IMG/VR virus record: IMGVR_UViG_3300034104_000085
Span: 1-26,321 of that record
Length of the DNA: 26,321 nucleotides
Origin: a virus
Reading direction: 5' to 3' (one strand)
Shown: piece by piece, positions 6,595 through 17,518 of the stretch
How positions within the stretch are numbered: position 1 is the first letter of the stretch
Layout: each line of letters begins with the position of its first letter
Program-made: the position numbers and the translations under genes
Notes under the pieces: generated by a model
Databases searched by the model: none
The model's input: only the letters and a program-made list of their open reading frames with translations
Told to the model about the DNA's origin: nothing

Positions 6595-6870
6595 TTATTC
6601 GTAAATAACAGTCATGGATACATCGCCAGATATGACAACATACAGACCTTTGTTGAATGCAATTCCACCAATATCACCACTTAACATCCGAACAGATGCC
6701 GAAGTAGGTGTGAATTGATGAATTAATTCTGGATCGGCTGTGCTTGCCGTGGCTGAGTCATACATCGTAACTCGCGGCACAGTGGCAGCCGAGCTAATGA
6801 AAAAACCTTTGATCTTGCCAAAGCCTACTTTGAGTTGGGTAGATGCCGTAATGTGTTTGTATTGTGACAT
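6595..6870 (-). CDS. Small beta-rich virion-type protein, paralogue B
   Basis: 91 residues from MSQYKHITASTQLKVGFGKI. This start was chosen over one nine codons earlier because it aligns with the start of the neighbouring paralogue (6876-7157) and lies just after that gene's stop codon. The two share KVG-GK-KG-F-S, then YD-AT-ST-DP, FTP-S, LSGD, FNKGLY and a final V-YE. Predicted all-beta, with no TM or signal peptide. Location between the portal and the spike suggests a head fibre, decoration or connector-accessory protein; the family is not recognised. The ribosome site is weak, so translation may depend on coupling to paralogue A. Confidence 0.75.
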   Translation of the reverse strand: MSQYKHITASTQLKVGFGKIKGFFISSAATVPRVTMYDSATASTADPELIHQFTPTSASVRMLSGDIGGIAFNKGLYVVISGDVSMTVIYE

Positions 6871-6875
6871 GGCTT

Positions 6876-7157
6876 TTACTCGTAAAAGACCGTGCAATTG
6901 ACAGTTGTACCGCCTTTGTCAAAGTACAGGCCCTTGTTGAAAAAAATACCTGCATCATCTCCACTCAACAAATACATGGTGTTACTCGATGGTGTAAAAG
7001 TCGCCAAAATTGTTGGGTCGCTTGTGCTAGACGTAGCGGTATCGTAAACAGCAAGCGTTGGTGTGCCAGAAGCAGTGCTTACAAAAATACCTTTGAGCTT
7101 TCCCGCCCCAACCTTAATCTGAGCGTCAGCATTGTTAATGTGAAAATACTGTGCCAT
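6876..7157 (-). CDS. Small beta-rich virion-type protein, paralogue A
   Basis: 93 residues, MAQYFHINNADAQIKVGAGK and onward, ending CTVFYE. Roughly half its positions match paralogue B immediately downstream, so the pair arose by tandem duplication. It has a good AAGGA ribosome site, unlike B, suggesting that A is translated independently. Conserved core motifs are LSGDDAGIFFNKGLYF and YDTATSSTSDP. A virion role is inferred from position within the structural operon. Confidence 0.78.
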   Translation of the reverse strand: MAQYFHINNADAQIKVGAGKLKGIFVSTASGTPTLAVYDTATSSTSDPTILATFTPSSNTMYLLSGDDAGIFFNKGLYFDKGGTTVNCTVFYE

Positions 7158-10023: not shown

Positions 10024-10278
10024 TCAGCACTTCCATCGTTTAAGAGCCGCTTTGGCGCGTTCGCCATCTTTGGCGTTCGCAGCTACTGCGCCCATTCTTG
10101 CACAAAACGAAGCCTTGCGGCCCTTATCTGCTTCAGTCTTAGGATTGGGTGCTGGCGCTTTGAGGTTAGAACCCGTGGCAGCGTTGTACTTCTCGCGCCC
10201 TTTGGCGGTCAGCCCTGCGCCTTTGCTTACCGGCAGTTTCTCGCCGCGGCCAACTGATAGAGACACGTTTTTCTTCAT
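10024..10278 (-). CDS. Small basic protein (DUF6321-like) coupled to the large terminase
   Basis: 84 residues from MKKNVSLSVGRGEKLPVSKG. The start is the ATG that overlaps the terminase stop codon (ATGA); a start four codons earlier is less likely. It contains GLTAKGREKYNAATGSNLKA and RKASFCARMGAV, a pattern I associate with a small phage family of unknown function (DUF6321-like, moderate recall). Basic, with two cysteines near the C-terminus. First of three consecutive tiny basic genes between terminase and portal; a virion or packaging accessory role is inferred. Confidence 0.75.
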   Translation of the reverse strand: MKKNVSLSVGRGEKLPVSKGAGLTAKGREKYNAATGSNLKAPAPNPKTEADKGRKASFCARMGAVAANAKDGERAKAALKRWKC

Positions 10279-11798
10279 GCGCCCATCCATCCTGTAGAGA
10301 CTGCGCTTTGAGAAGAAGATCGCCTTATTGTAGGCTCTTTATATTCTCTGTGCGCCACGGGGAAAGCAAACGTAACTGCAAGCGCATCAGCCGCATCAGG
10401 AGAAGCTAAACCTCTTGCTCGCATCTCTTTCTTGCCTTCCAAAAATATAGTTCCTGAAGAATTTGGTTTCTTCGTTGGACCCGTAAAATCAGCCTTCAAT
10501 TGCCGATCTGACGGGATACTAGCAGATTTCAGCCAATTACGCATCTCATTCCACATCTCTGCTCGCTTATTTCCAAATGCCTGCGAGTGCTTGGCCTTGC
10601 CTCCAAAGTTCACACCTCGGACCTTGTACCTCTGCTCAGTCAACCGGTCTAGTATCCCATACCCCAAACCACCCTCATCAATCACAGTCAAGGTTGGTTT
10701 GTATTCCTCAATGGCGTCAATCACTCTGCCCACAATTTCCATCGTATCTTCGCCCTTATAGCGCTTGATGGCCACAATGTCTCTACCCTGCCTCACCACA
10801 ATCACGGTCGAATCTGCCCCACCTCGAGCTGGGTCAACTCCAAGGATGATTGGCGCCGTCAAATCCTTGTACCTTGGCCTCTTCATCGCATCATCCACGA
10901 TCACAGGGCTAATAAACTGGTCTTCGCCAGCTGAAGGAAACTCGCCATAGACCTCAACCTTGGCTTGGCTGCTGTCCTCGCCATATTCAGCAATGATCTG
11001 CTCATAAATCGACTTGTCGGTGTCTTCCACTGTCCTGGCATCCACAATTTTGGACGTCCAAAAGTCCCGTTTGGCGTGAAAACACTCAAAAAAGTATCCC
11101 TCATTGCGCCGTGGGTTGGAAAATGCAAACCAGTACCGGTCCGGCGTGTTCTCAGTAAAGAATCCGGCTCCTACCTCCCAAATCGGGTTGGGGATACCGC
11201 TGGACTCATCAAAAATCAACATCATCCCGTCTTGATTGTGCACACCAGCGTAAGAATCGGGGTTTTCTGCGCTCCACAGCTTGCCCTCGCAAGCCCAATA
11301 ACGGGTGCCTTTTCGCAAATCTCGCTCCACCAGCTCAGTCAACCACTGCGCCGGCACCAGTTTGGTAGCCGAAATCTCCCACCAGTGCGAATTGATGAGC
11401 ATTGCAGCCCATTTGGTCAACTCGGCCCAAGTCACTGAGCGCAGCTGGTTCTCACTGTTGGCACTAACAACAACTGAACCACCAATGCGGGTGGTGAGCA
11501 TCCACAAAATCAACCAGCTAACTAGGGCTGACTTGCCAATACCTCGGCCAGAAGACACCGCCATGCGGATGGTGTCATAGTCAACCAAACCCTTTTGCTT
11601 CTTGATGTGCTGAGTAATGTCTCTGAGCACCTCCCTCTGCCATTTGCGTGGGCCGGTGAACTTCTCCAGCGGCGTATTCTTCTGGCCCCAAGGAAAAGCA
11701 AAAAGCACAAAAGCCTCCGGATCATCAGCAATGGCCGGTGACCATAGCTCCACCATCAGCTTTTGTTCTTCTTCGGATTTGTATATCGTGGTTTGCAT
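10275..11798 (-). CDS. terL: Terminase large subunit
   Basis: 507 residues. The N-terminal ATPase has Walker A GRGIGKS (84-90) and Walker B LIFDE (194-198). The C-terminal RNase H-like nuclease has its first acidic residue in LGVDPARGG (D322), a second acidic motif VIDEGGLGY (D374/E375) and a third SPDAADAL (D468/D471). This is the motor that translocates DNA through the portal and cuts concatemers. The ATG has no convincing ribosome site; an ATG at residue 15 is an alternative. Its 5' end abuts the oppositely directed promoter at 11793-11820, so the two transcription units could interfere. It is separated from the small subunit by the 540-residue gene. Confidence 0.95.
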   Translation of the reverse strand: MQTTIYKSEEEQKLMVELWSPAIADDPEAFVLFAFPWGQKNTPLEKFTGPRKWQREVLRDITQHIKKQKGLVDYDTIRMAVSSGRGIGKSALVSWLILWMLTTRIGGSVVVSANSENQLRSVTWAELTKWAAMLINSHWWEISATKLVPAQWLTELVERDLRKGTRYWACEGKLWSAENPDSYAGVHNQDGMMLIFDESSGIPNPIWEVGAGFFTENTPDRYWFAFSNPRRNEGYFFECFHAKRDFWTSKIVDARTVEDTDKSIYEQIIAEYGEDSSQAKVEVYGEFPSAGEDQFISPVIVDDAMKRPRYKDLTAPIILGVDPARGGADSTVIVVRQGRDIVAIKRYKGEDTMEIVGRVIDAIEEYKPTLTVIDEGGLGYGILDRLTEQRYKVRGVNFGGKAKHSQAFGNKRAEMWNEMRNWLKSASIPSDRQLKADFTGPTKKPNSSGTIFLEGKKEMRARGLASPDAADALAVTFAFPVAHREYKEPTIRRSSSQSAVSTGWMGA

Positions 11799-11820
11799 TT
11801 ATCTAGCTATCTGATAGAAT
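11793..11820 (+). promoter_or_regulatory. Sigma70-type promoter with extended -10 for the counter-oriented gene
   Basis: TTGCAT (11793-11798), a 16-base spacer and TAGAAT (11815-11820), preceded by TG one base upstream (TGA-TAGAAT, extended -10). Transcription would begin around 11827 and reach a GGAGG site at 11829-11833 and the ATG at 11840, giving a very short leader. It faces against the structural operon and overlaps the terminase start codon. Confidence 0.6.
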
Positions 11821-11839
11821 GTTGCTTTGGAGGCCAACA

Positions 11840-12028
11840 ATGAAAAAAGTAGTTGCATACTGTGGTTTTAATTTTTCCAACAATTCTGCTTATTTGCGGA
11901 TGCCAGAAGCGTTTTGGTGTCAACCAGATAAACAGCGCCTTGAAATCGTAAACCAATTGATCGAAGAATTGACCAAAGAAAAAGACCATCTTGAGTCGAT
12001 CAATCAACTTGATACCCAAGGTATCTAG
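11840..12028 (+). CDS. Counter-oriented small gene, moron-like, unknown function
   Basis: 62 residues, MKKVVAYCGFNFSNNSAYLR and onward. The C-terminal half is a charged helix with IVNQLIEELTKEKDHLESIN. No TM or signal. It is the only plus-strand gene in the structural region. A strong GGAGG ribosome site six bases before the ATG and a good promoter directly upstream support it. Its last 29 bases overlap the 3' end of the convergent 540-residue gene. A single promoter-gene unit inserted between late genes is the layout of a phage moron, a class that often affects the host or excludes other phages; that function is inference. An opposing frame over the same bases has no start signals and was rejected. 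Confidence 0.7.
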   Translation: MKKVVAYCGFNFSNNSAYLRMPEAFWCQPDKQRLEIVNQLIEELTKEKDHLESINQLDTQGI

Positions 12029-13622
12029 CAATATTGTCAATTGCTTCTTGATCTAATTTTTCCCCAGTATGGCTTTTAAGCAATGATGTGCGGATGTTGC
12101 TCAATGTCTTACCCTGCGCTTGGCGCTCTTTAAACAACTTAGGCATCATTAAATAATCCGGCACACCAACCACCTGTCCTTGTGCATTTTGTAACGATCC
12201 CATAACTTGCGCTTTAAGGCCGGCATTGTATGAACCATGTTGAAAGTTTGGTGTGACCATTTGAGTTTTGGGCTGTACGCTTAACAGCGTATGCGCCATG
12301 CCAGTCTCTGCACCTGGCTCGCTCATCACGTTATAAACATCTTGCCACCGCGGGAATCCTTGCTTTTCCATTGCATAAGTTGATCCAACTTCGCCAATTG
12401 CTTTTCGAATATTGCCAGCGGTGTAATCCTCAGTGCCGTTGGCCATAATGTCCCGAATATTGGGACTATCCAAGCCAGGGAATTTTTTATATGGGTATGT
12501 AATTTCTCCAGTAACTGGATTTTTTACTTTTGTATTTCTAACCGCATCTCTGTAAGAAGTGAGCGCCTCTCTAGATGGCTTTAAATAATTTAAAGACCCA
12601 ACATATGCTTCAGCCACATGATGCGAAAAATTCAAACCAGTTGGCGCAAGATTCATCTGCACACCTACGGTATCACCCAATTCGCTGTATGTATTTAAGT
12701 TGTTGATCTTTGATATTTGCGCCGTTTCATTAGAAGCACCGCCAACACCTTGCTGTAAATTTTCTTGAATGTACGGGTAACGCCTGCCGCCTTGACGCTG
12801 CACAAACGCTGGTGTCGCATCTCTCAAACCTTGCGTTAACGGTACACCAGCAAGCTGGGTTACATCACCACCAGTTGCAGACGTATCCCACAAAATCGGC
12901 ACTACATATTTATCTAACAATTGATTGGGATTGACTCCCATTTCTTGCGCCACATTCAATGATGGCTGCACAATGTCACCAGTGCCAAACAATCTAGCCT
13001 GCTCTCGCCGCATTACTTGGGGCGTATCCAATATTGATTTGTACTTTGTCAGCGCAGCCTTTTCCGCGGGAGTCAGCATCGCTTCAGTCTTGCCAGGGAA
13101 CAACGCTTCAACAGCTTTTAACTTGCCAACACGTTCGGCCATATTGGCTGTTGTACCCTGCGCCATACCCTGCAATATCTCAGCAGGCAAACCACCCTGC
13201 TCCATCATCTGAGGAATCACCCTCTCAGCATAACGCTCACCAGCTCTGCCTGCTTGCATCGCTGCTTGTCTTGCAGCTCTTGCCGCCTGAAGACTCGCCA
13301 TCGTTACAGGCTTTGCTGTAGGTGCTACCGCCATTGCAGCTTCTAACGCCTCTGGCCTCACCCGTGTTGTTCCACCCAAACCACCAGCGCCAGTTGTCAA
13401 TGGCTCACCATACGACAACCGGTCCAATGTCTGACTAATTGCAGGGACACTAAGAAATTGCGCCGCGCCTTGCATCTGCTGAGTTCTCTCAGGCGCATAA
13501 CTCTGCGCCAAAAAATCAGCCAATGCGCCCAGATACTCATTCCTTGGCACCGGACCAATAGACCCCTGATACGCCAACATATTCGCTGGGCGCTGCGTAA
13601 GTGCATTGTTGTAGGTCGGCAT
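12000..13622 (-). CDS. Large protein of unknown function between the terminase subunits
   Basis: 540 residues. The N-terminal part includes NEYLGALADFLAQSYAPE and a long Ala/Arg helix around residues 105-150. The central part has ARLFGTGDIVQPSLNVAQEM, and the later part has VAEAYVGSLNYLKPSREAL, YPYKKFPGLDSPNI and MEKQGFPRWQDVYNVMS, which look like a conserved globular domain. No TM, signal peptide or recognisable catalytic motif. In the late operon it could be a virion-internal protein delivered with DNA, or an enzyme of the large polyvalent-protein type; neither can be shown. No clear ribosome site precedes the ATG, and the leader is the A/T-rich stretch at 13625-13660. Confidence 0.85.
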   Translation of the reverse strand: MPTYNNALTQRPANMLAYQGSIGPVPRNEYLGALADFLAQSYAPERTQQMQGAAQFLSVPAISQTLDRLSYGEPLTTGAGGLGGTTRVRPEALEAAMAVAPTAKPVTMASLQAARAARQAAMQAGRAGERYAERVIPQMMEQGGLPAEILQGMAQGTTANMAERVGKLKAVEALFPGKTEAMLTPAEKAALTKYKSILDTPQVMRREQARLFGTGDIVQPSLNVAQEMGVNPNQLLDKYVVPILWDTSATGGDVTQLAGVPLTQGLRDATPAFVQRQGGRRYPYIQENLQQGVGGASNETAQISKINNLNTYSELGDTVGVQMNLAPTGLNFSHHVAEAYVGSLNYLKPSREALTSYRDAVRNTKVKNPVTGEITYPYKKFPGLDSPNIRDIMANGTEDYTAGNIRKAIGEVGSTYAMEKQGFPRWQDVYNVMSEPGAETGMAHTLLSVQPKTQMVTPNFQHGSYNAGLKAQVMGSLQNAQGQVVGVPDYLMMPKLFKERQAQGKTLSNIRTSLLKSHTGEKLDQEAIDNIARYLGYQVD

Positions 13623-13971
13623 GGGTCAAATATACATTAAAAAATAAAAAAAATTGTGTGCGATGCCACCCGTTCCGGTGCCCTTTCGCCGCGGCCCTAC
13701 CCCCCCGCCCGAAAAATTGGCAGGTGGGGCCATGGGCGCCGGCTGGACCTGACGGCCAATGACCCTAGTTATCCACAGGCCGAGGGCTAGATTCTGCGGC
13801 TTTTGTCCACAGATCCTGTCGGTTTGGGTTGGCCTTGGCCATTTGGTTTGTATAACCTGTGCACAACCCACTTTGTGGTTAACATAATAGTCATTGTGTA
13901 AAACCAACTATGTCAGCAATCTGTAAGACAGTATATAAATCAACAACTTACTCTCAAAAGATATGCACATA
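13623..13971. other. Non-coding region with DnaA-box cluster, candidate replication origin
   Basis: About 350 bases without a credible gene. It contains a perfect DnaA box TTATCCACA (13769-13777), TTGTCCACA (13803-13811), TTGTGCACA on the minus strand (13858-13866) and TTTTACACA on the minus strand (13895-13903), four sites in 135 bases. A/T-rich tracts at 13625-13660 and 13875-13970 could serve as an unwinding element. A seven-C tract and very GC-rich stretch lie at 13690-13745. Because it also borders the small terminase gene, a packaging site is a second possibility. Origin function is inferred from motifs only. Confidence 0.55.
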
Positions 13972-14484
13972 TTACTTTGGCTCTATATCTGTCACGTCAT
14001 CCGACTTGGCCATACCAATCTGAACGCGAGCCTGCGCCTGCTCGAGCGCTTGAATGACGCTGATCCGGTTATCGCTGACGCTGACATCGAGCCGGTCACC
14101 GTATGTCCTCGGCTTGAGTTTGCTGGCCACCCATTTGCGAGCATCGACCTGAAGGCGCTTCTGGTTCACCCAGGCGCTCATTGCAGTGCCTTCCAAGCCA
14201 TCTGGCGGCTCTGCATCAGCCAGCTCAACAATCTCCTCTGCCAGACGGTCTGCGCGGTCTTCTACGGCCTTTTCGTAGGCTTCCTTGTACTCTGGGTTGG
14301 TTCGGATCATCAGCTTGGCCAAACCATAGCTAGGCATTCCTTCCAAACGCAAAGCGCCAGACAAGCTTTTGCCGCCAGCAACTTCATCAATGATCCGCTG
14401 CCAGATCGGGTTTTCGATGGGGAACTCCACCGGCCTGCCCATGACTGCGCCGCTTTTCGTCGTTTTTTCTGCCAAAGTTTTCAT
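13972..14484 (-). CDS. terS: Terminase small subunit
   Basis: 170 residues from MKTLAEKTTKSGAVMGRPVE. It has an N-terminal helix-turn-helix-like region (WQRIIDEVAGGKSLSGALRL), PEYKEAYEKAVEDRADRLAE, and the family-typical RLQVDARKWVASKLKPRTYG. Small subunits of this kind recognise the packaging site and regulate the motor. The frame is open to an ATG at 14547, but the start at 14484 overlaps the stop codon of the 49-residue gene upstream (ATGA), which favours it. The non-coding DnaA-box region follows downstream. Confidence 0.85.
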   Translation of the reverse strand: MKTLAEKTTKSGAVMGRPVEFPIENPIWQRIIDEVAGGKSLSGALRLEGMPSYGLAKLMIRTNPEYKEAYEKAVEDRADRLAEEIVELADAEPPDGLEGTAMSAWVNQKRLQVDARKWVASKLKPRTYGDRLDVSVSDNRISVIQALEQAQARVQIGMAKSDDVTDIEPK

Positions 14485-14630
14485 GCCTGCCCCGTGCGCG
14501 CGCGCGTAATTGGAAAAATTGTCGCCGAGAATCGCCCACCCCGACATTCCCGCACATCCTGATTAGCCAAAAAATCGGGGTACTCACAACCTGCTTTCCC
14601 CCAAAGTAGCAACTGCATTGCCATTGTCAT
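14481..14630 (-). CDS. 49-residue gene coupled at both ends, unknown function
   Basis: Reads MTMAMQLLLWGKAGCEYPDF, then LANQDVRECRGGRFSATIFP and a short Arg/Thr tail. Its ATG overlaps the RusA stop codon (ATGA) and its own stop codon overlaps the small-terminase ATG (ATGA), a double coupling hard to explain unless it is translated. Two cysteines and a central basic patch are present, with no TM segment. No family recognised. The 3' part contains an alternating CG run. If the small terminase used the longer start, the two genes would overlap extensively. Confidence 0.6.
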   Translation of the reverse strand: MTMAMQLLLWGKAGCEYPDFLANQDVRECRGGRFSATIFPITRARTGQA

Positions 14631-17485: not shown

Positions 17486-17509
17486 ACCGCTAGAAGTCTC
17501 TAGTTTTTT

Positions 17510-17518
17510 GCTAGAATT
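17510..17518 (+). promoter_or_regulatory. Candidate rightward extended -10 promoter
   Basis: TGC-TAGAAT, the same form as the promoter at 11811-11820. The -35 position has no good match and is occupied by the CTAGA-N4-TCTAG operator, which would allow direct repression. The start site would be near 17525, giving a leader of about 60 bases before the ATG at 17587. Confidence 0.5.

What the first reader, a model, noticed from the sequence alone, without database searches (positions are those of the whole stretch)
11793..12028. Counter-oriented promoter-gene unit (moron candidate) between the terminase gene and a late gene
A single plus-strand gene of 62 codons interrupts a minus-strand late operon. 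It has an extended -10 promoter (TTGCAT, 16 bases, TGATAGAAT), a short leader and a near-consensus GGAGG site. The promoter overlaps the terminase start codon. This is the layout of a moron, a class rich in superinfection-exclusion and anti-defence genes, and the protein resembles no family I know.
Basis: partly seen in the sequence, partly recalled or inferred. Interest (0 to 1): 0.65.

Follow-up and report, generated by a model that had tools for sequence, protein, structure and literature searches.

The report
Early partner gene of swappable phage effector
In a group of freshwater bacterial viruses, a tiny gene read in the opposite direction to its neighbours has its own switch and is always inherited with one interchangeable end-piece of the neighbouring gene, probably as a built-in antidote or keeper for a protein the virus may inject, although no experiment has yet tested this.

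Summary
The 62-codon plus-strand ORF (g62, 11840-12028) is intact in all complete relatives among 27 viral-contig loci, with dN/dS about 0.05. Its TTGCAT-16-TAGAAT promoter and GGAGG site are conserved.

"Moron" is only half right. g62 overlaps, tail to tail, a 540-aa late protein (X) that swaps C-terminal domains between TerS and TerL. g62 is present only when X carries domain CTD1. A homologous domain, CTD2, instead carries an unrelated 68-aa counter-oriented gene (g68) behind the same promoter. X proteins with metallopeptidase-like, ADP-ribosyltransferase-like or another domain have no such gene: 45/45 versus 0/34 loci, with at least 21 changes on the terminase tree. The g68/CTD2 pair also recurs, tail to tail, in unrelated phages.

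Best explanation: a modular, polyvalent-type (probably virion-injected) effector whose CTD-specific partner is expressed early from a resident promoter, most likely as antidote or holder. Toxicity, binding and injection are inferred. Two things weaken an obligate antidote: remote homologues lack a partner, and in a marine lineage (CRP-902-like) the counter-oriented gene comes and goes beside the same protein.

The parts
11793..11820 (+). Promoter of g62: -35 TTGCAT (11793-11798, overlapping the terminase start codon), 16-nt spacer, extended -10 TGATAGAAT (11812-11820)
   Evidence: conserved in CTD1/g62 and CTD2/g68 loci, absent where X abuts TerL. Activity itself not tested.
11829..11833 (+). 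Shine-Dalgarno GGAGG of g62
   Evidence: conserved in most g62 relatives
11840..12028 (+). g62, 62-aa protein; AlphaFold2 model: beta hairpin (7-11, 16-20) and long helix (30-59), mean pLDDT 86
12000..12028 (.). 29-nt tail-to-tail overlap of g62 and gene X
12000..13622 (-). Gene X (p540), 540-aa modular late protein between TerS and TerL
12003..13160 (-). C-terminal domain CTD1 of X (about residues 155-540), the part g62 tracks
   Evidence: homologous to CTD2 (hhalign E 1.9e-6)
13140..13622 (-). N-terminal domain of X (about residues 1-161), shared with X proteins that carry other C-terminal domains
10275..11798 (-). Terminase large subunit; neighbour of the cassette, not part of it
   Evidence: phrog_2, E 4.6e-45
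13972..14547 (-). Terminase small subunit (Sf6 type); other neighbour of the cassette
   Evidence: PF20901, E 2.5e-26

Best explanation
g62 is the dedicated partner gene of C-terminal domain CTD1 of the adjacent late protein X. X sits between the terminase genes of P22-like podoviruses and is a modular effector of the polyvalent-protein kind: a conserved N-terminal part joined to interchangeable C-terminal domains. Swaps bring in a domain and, for CTD1 and CTD2, its small counter-oriented gene, placed just behind a promoter that stays on the terminase side. Proposed working: the host RNA polymerase reads g62 early, in the direction of the early genes, so g62 protein is present before X is made late. 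It binds CTD1 and keeps it inactive (antidote) or held until X is packaged. X is then delivered with the DNA, acts in the next cell, and newly made g62 limits that action and protects the infected cell against effectors of the same type brought by co-infecting phages. Shown: real gene, conserved promoter, strict linkage to the domain type, repeated swapping, partner replacement. Inferred: early timing, binding, toxicity of CTD1, packaging and injection. My odds by step: real gene 0.99; CTD-linked cassette 0.95; functional partner of the CTD 0.65; antidote or immunity specifically 0.45.
For: (1) In 79 loci with the same N-terminal domain and slot, CTD1 goes with g62 17/17, CTD2 with counter-oriented g68 28/28, and the other types with no counter-oriented gene 0/34 (Fisher 4e-23 but loci are related). 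(2) On a tree of 83 terminases the domain type changes at least 32 times and counter-gene presence at least 21 times; L127, L140 and L165 have identical sampled terminase sequence yet CTD2+g68 versus ART and no gene. (3) CTD1 and CTD2 are homologous (E 1.9e-6, 263 columns), g62 and g68 show no similarity, yet the promoter is the same letter for letter up to the swap point in L109 versus L147, and matches closely in L027 versus L229. (4) g62 stays with CTD1 although the N-terminal domain of X is of at least three kinds. (5) g68 has CTD2 on the opposite strand in 80/80 loci, including about 17 in which no homologous terminase or N-terminal domain was found, at 51-59% g68 identity, several with a different, near-consensus promoter and GGAGG; 79/79 CTD2 loci with enough downstream DNA have g68. 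(6) g62 dN/dS 0.047 and g68 0.16: protein-level selection. (7) Sibling X proteins carry domains named from polyvalent proteins: LPD23 (41 bits, cut-off 27) and ART-PolyVal (33 bits, cut-off 31.2); CTD1 also lies inside a 1330-aa protein with a PcfJ domain.
Against: Remote CTD1 homologues have no partner: L072/L073 (32%) and L094/L095 (61%). In the distant CRP-902-like marine family a counter-oriented 77-aa gene next to the homologous protein is present in about half the loci and absent in others with 74-85% identical X, so such a gene can be dispensable. CTD1 and g62 overlap, so any swap that carries one carries the other: linkage alone could explain co-occurrence. g62 distances correlate with CTD1 (rho 0.60) more than with TerL (0.26), but linkage predicts that too. 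CTD1 has no recognised toxic activity and its model is poor (pLDDT 61). No integrase or resolvase was found in eight long relative contigs, so lysogen immunity is not the obvious need.
Confidence: 0.55

Rival explanations
1. g62 is a free-standing moron (superinfection exclusion or anti-defence) that sits in a tolerated insertion site behind X and travels with CTD1 only because the genes overlap.
For: Own promoter, opposite strand, absent from many syntenic phages. In the CRP-902-like lineage the counter-oriented gene behind the homologous protein is present or absent beside similar X, which is moron-like behaviour.
Against: No counter-oriented gene occurs with the other domain types in the same slot (0/34), and the g68/CTD2 pairing is kept 80/80 and 79/79 down to about 51-60% identity in unrelated phages.
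Confidence: 0.27
2. g62 is a packaging adaptor or chaperone that loads CTD1-type X into the head, rather than an antidote.
For: Same linkage data; g62 is small with a long C-terminal helix.
Against: It is counter-oriented with its own promoter instead of sitting in the late operon, and the ART, metallopeptidase and X75 types manage without one.
Confidence: 0.12
3. The feature is regulatory: counter-transcription from this promoter makes antisense RNA against the X 3' end or interferes with terminase expression, and the protein is incidental.
For: Promoter overlaps the terminase start and the transcript runs into X antisense.
Against: Protein-level selection on g62 and g68 (dN/dS 0.047 and 0.16) with intact frames.
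Confidence: 0.04
4. The ORF is spurious.
For: Short ORF on the strand opposite a gene's end.
Against: Frame intact in all complete relatives, strong purifying selection, other plus frames closed.
Confidence: 0.01

Closest known systems
MuF polymorphic toxins of temperate phages (Jamet et al. 2017, PMC5576092)
   Same: Phage packaging-module protein with a conserved N-terminus and varied C-terminal effector domains; small gene following the effector gene in most toxin-bearing cases (89.4% of 191 in that paper).
   Different: No MuF domain match in X; the small gene is counter-oriented, overlapping and has its own promoter shared by two unrelated partners; no integrase or resolvase detected in relatives.
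Polyvalent proteins (Iyer et al. 2017, PMC5512222)
   Same: Domains LPD23, ART-PolyVal and PcfJ in siblings or homologues; phage location near late packaging genes, as that paper describes.
   Different: X is short (430-600 aa), with one C-terminal domain at a time. In the passages I read the paper does not describe C-terminal-domain-specific partner genes.
Lambdoid morons
   Same: Promoter plus single gene in opposite orientation between late genes.
   Different: Tied to a domain type of the neighbour; no clear terminator.
Roseobacter phage CRP-902 gp72/gp71
   Same: Homologue of the C-terminal domain family (24% identity over 90% of CTD2) followed 2 nt away by a counter-oriented 77-aa gene.
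   Different: gp71 is unrelated in appearance to g62 and g68, and about half of its close relatives lack it.

Membership tests
Polymorphic toxin-immunity systems | Conserved N-terminal part with exchangeable C-terminal domains | tested here: met
Polymorphic toxin-immunity systems | Small gene specific to the C-terminal domain type next to the effector gene | tested here: met
   CTD1/g62 17/17, CTD2/g68 28/28, others none; 80/80 and 79/79
Polymorphic toxin-immunity systems | C-terminal domain is toxic and neutralised by the small protein | not testable with these tools
   No family or fold match for CTD1; needs expression tests
MuF toxins | MuF domain in the N-terminus | tested here: not met
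   No MuF match in Pfam for the window X or six sibling or homologous X proteins
MuF toxins | Carried by temperate phages | tested here: inconclusive
   No PF00589 or PF00239 match in eight long relative contigs, which may be incomplete
Polyvalent proteins | Contains domains characteristic of the class | tested here: met
   Met for siblings sharing the N-terminal domain: LPD23, ART-PolyVal; CTD1 homologue in a 1330-aa protein with PcfJ. Window X itself has no curated match
Polyvalent proteins | Encoded near phage virion and packaging genes | tested here: met
   Between TerS and TerL
Polyvalent proteins | Packaged and injected with the DNA | not testable with these tools
   Needs virion proteomics
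Moron | Own promoter, and present or absent relative to close phages | tested here: met
Moron | Own terminator | tested here: inconclusive
   Plus-strand terminator-like sites at 12350 and 12507 only, from a weak consensus scan (12 found against 6.7 expected, sd 2.4)
Moron | Independent of neighbouring genes | tested here: not met
   Presence is fully predicted by the C-terminal domain type of X

The most novel reading that the evidence does not exclude
Phages without a detected integrase use exchangeable virion effectors with type-specific, early-expressed antidotes for phage-phage competition. g62 and g68 would mark kin: a cell infected by a CTD1 phage resists the CTD1 effector of a co-infecting sibling but not CTD2 or other types. 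This would be a polymorphic effector-immunity system operating between phages rather than between bacteria.
Probability: 0.2. Interest if true: 0.88.

Novelty: new variant of a known kind. Interest (0 to 1): 0.62.

Why it matters
Polyvalent proteins are predicted to be injected effectors, but I found no report of effector-specific partner genes for them in the papers I could search. Here one slot shows natural domain swaps in phages with nearly or fully identical terminases, with the small gene changing in step with the domain. That gives ready-made pairs (CTD1/g62, CTD2/g68) with crossed controls to test whether phages carry antidotes to their own injected proteins, and whether this decides co-infections.

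Tried and rejected
Spurious ORF: rejected by codon evidence. Same-sense gene opposite g68: an antisense frame is open in near relatives but has stops in divergent ones and a higher dN/dS, so rejected. g62 in bacterial genomes: none found in one genome-contig scan. g62 and g68 as one family: no similarity. Families: PHROG matches for g62 at E about 0.05 only; HIV RNase H matches at E 0.014 over about 26 residues judged chance. Fold search of g62 gave only weak matches (best Z 3.6) and the CTD1 model is too poor for conclusions; no known fold is excluded by this. CTD1 was not identified in PADLOC or NCBIfam. Universality of the partner: not upheld (L072, L094, C72C1 and half of the CRP-902-like loci). 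Rfam and tRNA scans of the window were empty. A g62-CTD1 complex prediction could not be run with the tools given.

Full report
Observation. The described feature exists at the stated coordinates. The plus-strand ORF 11840-12028 encodes 62 aa, with TTGCAT (11793-11798), a 16-nt spacer, TGATAGAAT (11812-11820) and GGAGG (11829-11833) in front. TTGCAT is the reverse complement of the first two terminase codons. The combined promoter pattern is unique in the window and absent from 100 shuffles. A second exact TGNTAGAAT lies at 17509-17517, about 70 nt before the first gene of the plus-strand replication block, consistent with, but not proof of, early expression.

Coding. A scan of IMG/VR found 28 loci (one holds only the first 19 residues); g62 is 78-100% identical in them. 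Among 19 distinct full-length DNA sequences the frame is always open, variable sites fall mostly at third codon positions, and median dN/dS is 0.047. The promoter hexamers and the ribosome site are conserved while the flanks vary.

Genome setting. The window is from a P22-like podovirus: P22 portal, P22 coat and Sf6-type TerS. Late genes lie on the minus strand. The order is TerS, X (540 aa), TerL, with g62 counter-oriented between X and TerL and overlapping the X stop by 29 nt. Phages DSL-LC05 and ctNMl277 have related TerL and portal but neither X nor g62; in DSL-LC05 TerS and TerL abut.

X is modular. Searching with X and its N-terminal domain found loci in the same slot whose X shares residues 1-161 but ends differently. 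The C-terminal types include CTD1 (window), CTD2, a metallopeptidase-like type with LPD23 above the Pfam cut-off, an ADP-ribosyltransferase-like type (below the cut-off in three proteins, and above it in L115), and an unassigned type (X75). Conversely CTD1 is joined to at least three kinds of N-terminus, and a 61% relative of it lies in a 1330-aa protein with a PcfJ domain. LPD23, ART-PolyVal and PcfJ point to the polyvalent-protein class, predicted to be injected with DNA and encoded near late virion genes (PMC5512222). Packaging of X itself was not tested.

g62 follows CTD1, and CTD2 has its own partner. Of 79 classifiable loci, 17/17 CTD1 loci have g62; 28/28 CTD2 loci have a different counter-oriented gene, g68 (68 aa), in a constant gap of 214-215 nt; 3 ART, 17 metallopeptidase and 10 X75 loci have no gap and no such gene; 3 loci have a co-oriented 44-aa gene and one a larger gap of another kind. 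CTD1 and CTD2 are homologous (hhalign E 1.9e-6), g62 and g68 are not detectably so. The promoter segment is identical in L109 (g62) and L147 (g68) up to the point where the unrelated genes begin; window and L131/L138, and L027 and L229, show the same pattern. The promoter therefore stays while domain plus partner change. g68 is also under protein-level selection (dN/dS 0.16).

Independence. On a tree of 83 terminase sequences the domain type changes at least 32 times and counter-gene presence at least 21 times; L127, L140 and L165 share an identical sampled terminase but differ in type. The Fisher value 4e-23 ignores relatedness and should be read with this tree. The tree used a quick method and support is modest.

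Pair kept in unrelated phages. A g68 scan returned 80 loci, all with CTD2 on the opposite strand. About 17 lie in phages in which no homologous terminase or N-terminal domain was found, with g68 at 51-59% and CTD2 at about 53-64% identity; several have a different near-consensus promoter (TTGCGT...TATAAT) and GGAGG in front of g68. A CTD2 scan gave 80 loci; 79 of them have g68, and the one exception ends 10 nt after CTD2. Physical overlap alone would move the genes together, but retention of both over this divergence suggests that they work together.

Limits. Remote members lack a partner: L072/L073 at 32% and L094/L095 at 61%, and C72C1 has only a co-oriented small gene. In the CRP-902-like marine lineage a third counter-oriented gene (77 aa, 2 nt from the X end) occurs in about half of the 23 loci and is missing next to X proteins of 74-85% identity. 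That lineage behaves more like a moron, so the antidote reading is not general for the domain family. CTD1 has no known activity, and structure models did not help (g62 pLDDT 86, weak matches; CTD1 pLDDT 61).

Mechanism. Shown: gene, promoter conservation, domain-specific linkage, swaps. Inferred: early g62 protein meets late X and binds CTD1, keeping it inactive or held; X is delivered with DNA and acts in the next cell; new g62 then limits it. I give 0.65 to a functional partnership and 0.45 to antidote or immunity. Because no integrase or resolvase was found in eight long relative contigs, the need would be self-protection of the producing cell or protection against co-infecting kin rather than lysogen immunity; the contigs may be incomplete.

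Known relatives. The closest working parallel is the MuF polymorphic toxins, for which small downstream genes were taken as immunity genes (PMC5576092). X lacks a MuF domain match, and the partner here is counter-oriented with its own promoter. The closest class by domain content is polyvalent proteins. I rate it a new variant of a known kind. The literature search covered open-licence papers only, so a description elsewhere cannot be excluded.

Noticed in passing
Loci L144 4001-5682, L154, L115: ART-type X proteins with a third arrangement: a co-oriented 44-aa gene (g44) between X and TerL in gaps of 130-140 nt, overlapping both neighbours by a few bases in L144.
   Followed up: partly
L147, L121 and other CTD2 loci, upstream of g68: In the podovirus lineage g68 starts only about 6-7 nt after the -10 hexamer, which would give a leaderless mRNA, whereas g62 behind the same promoter has a 19-nt leader with GGAGG.
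   Followed up: no
L318 5041-5274 and L320-L344: A counter-oriented 77-aa gene (CRP-902 gp71) 2 nt after a distant X homologue is present in about half of the marine relatives and cleanly absent in the rest: a natural presence/absence comparison.
   Followed up: partly
window 13623-13971: A 349-nt stretch between TerS and X without a convincing gene, with a minus-strand promoter-like site TTGAGA-16-TATACT (13957-13930) in front of X.
   Followed up: no
window 6595-6897 and 6876-7157 (-): Two adjacent small late genes encode clearly similar proteins (about 90 aa each), apparently a tandem duplication.
   Followed up: no
window 17509-17517 (+): The only other exact TGNTAGAAT in the window lies about 70 nt before the first plus-strand gene of the replication block (17587).
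   Followed up: partly
L009 5164-5583 (contig IMGVR_UViG_3300020043_000527): CTD1 appears cut short near the contig end while g62 is intact; assembly break or broken gene, not resolved.
   Followed up: no
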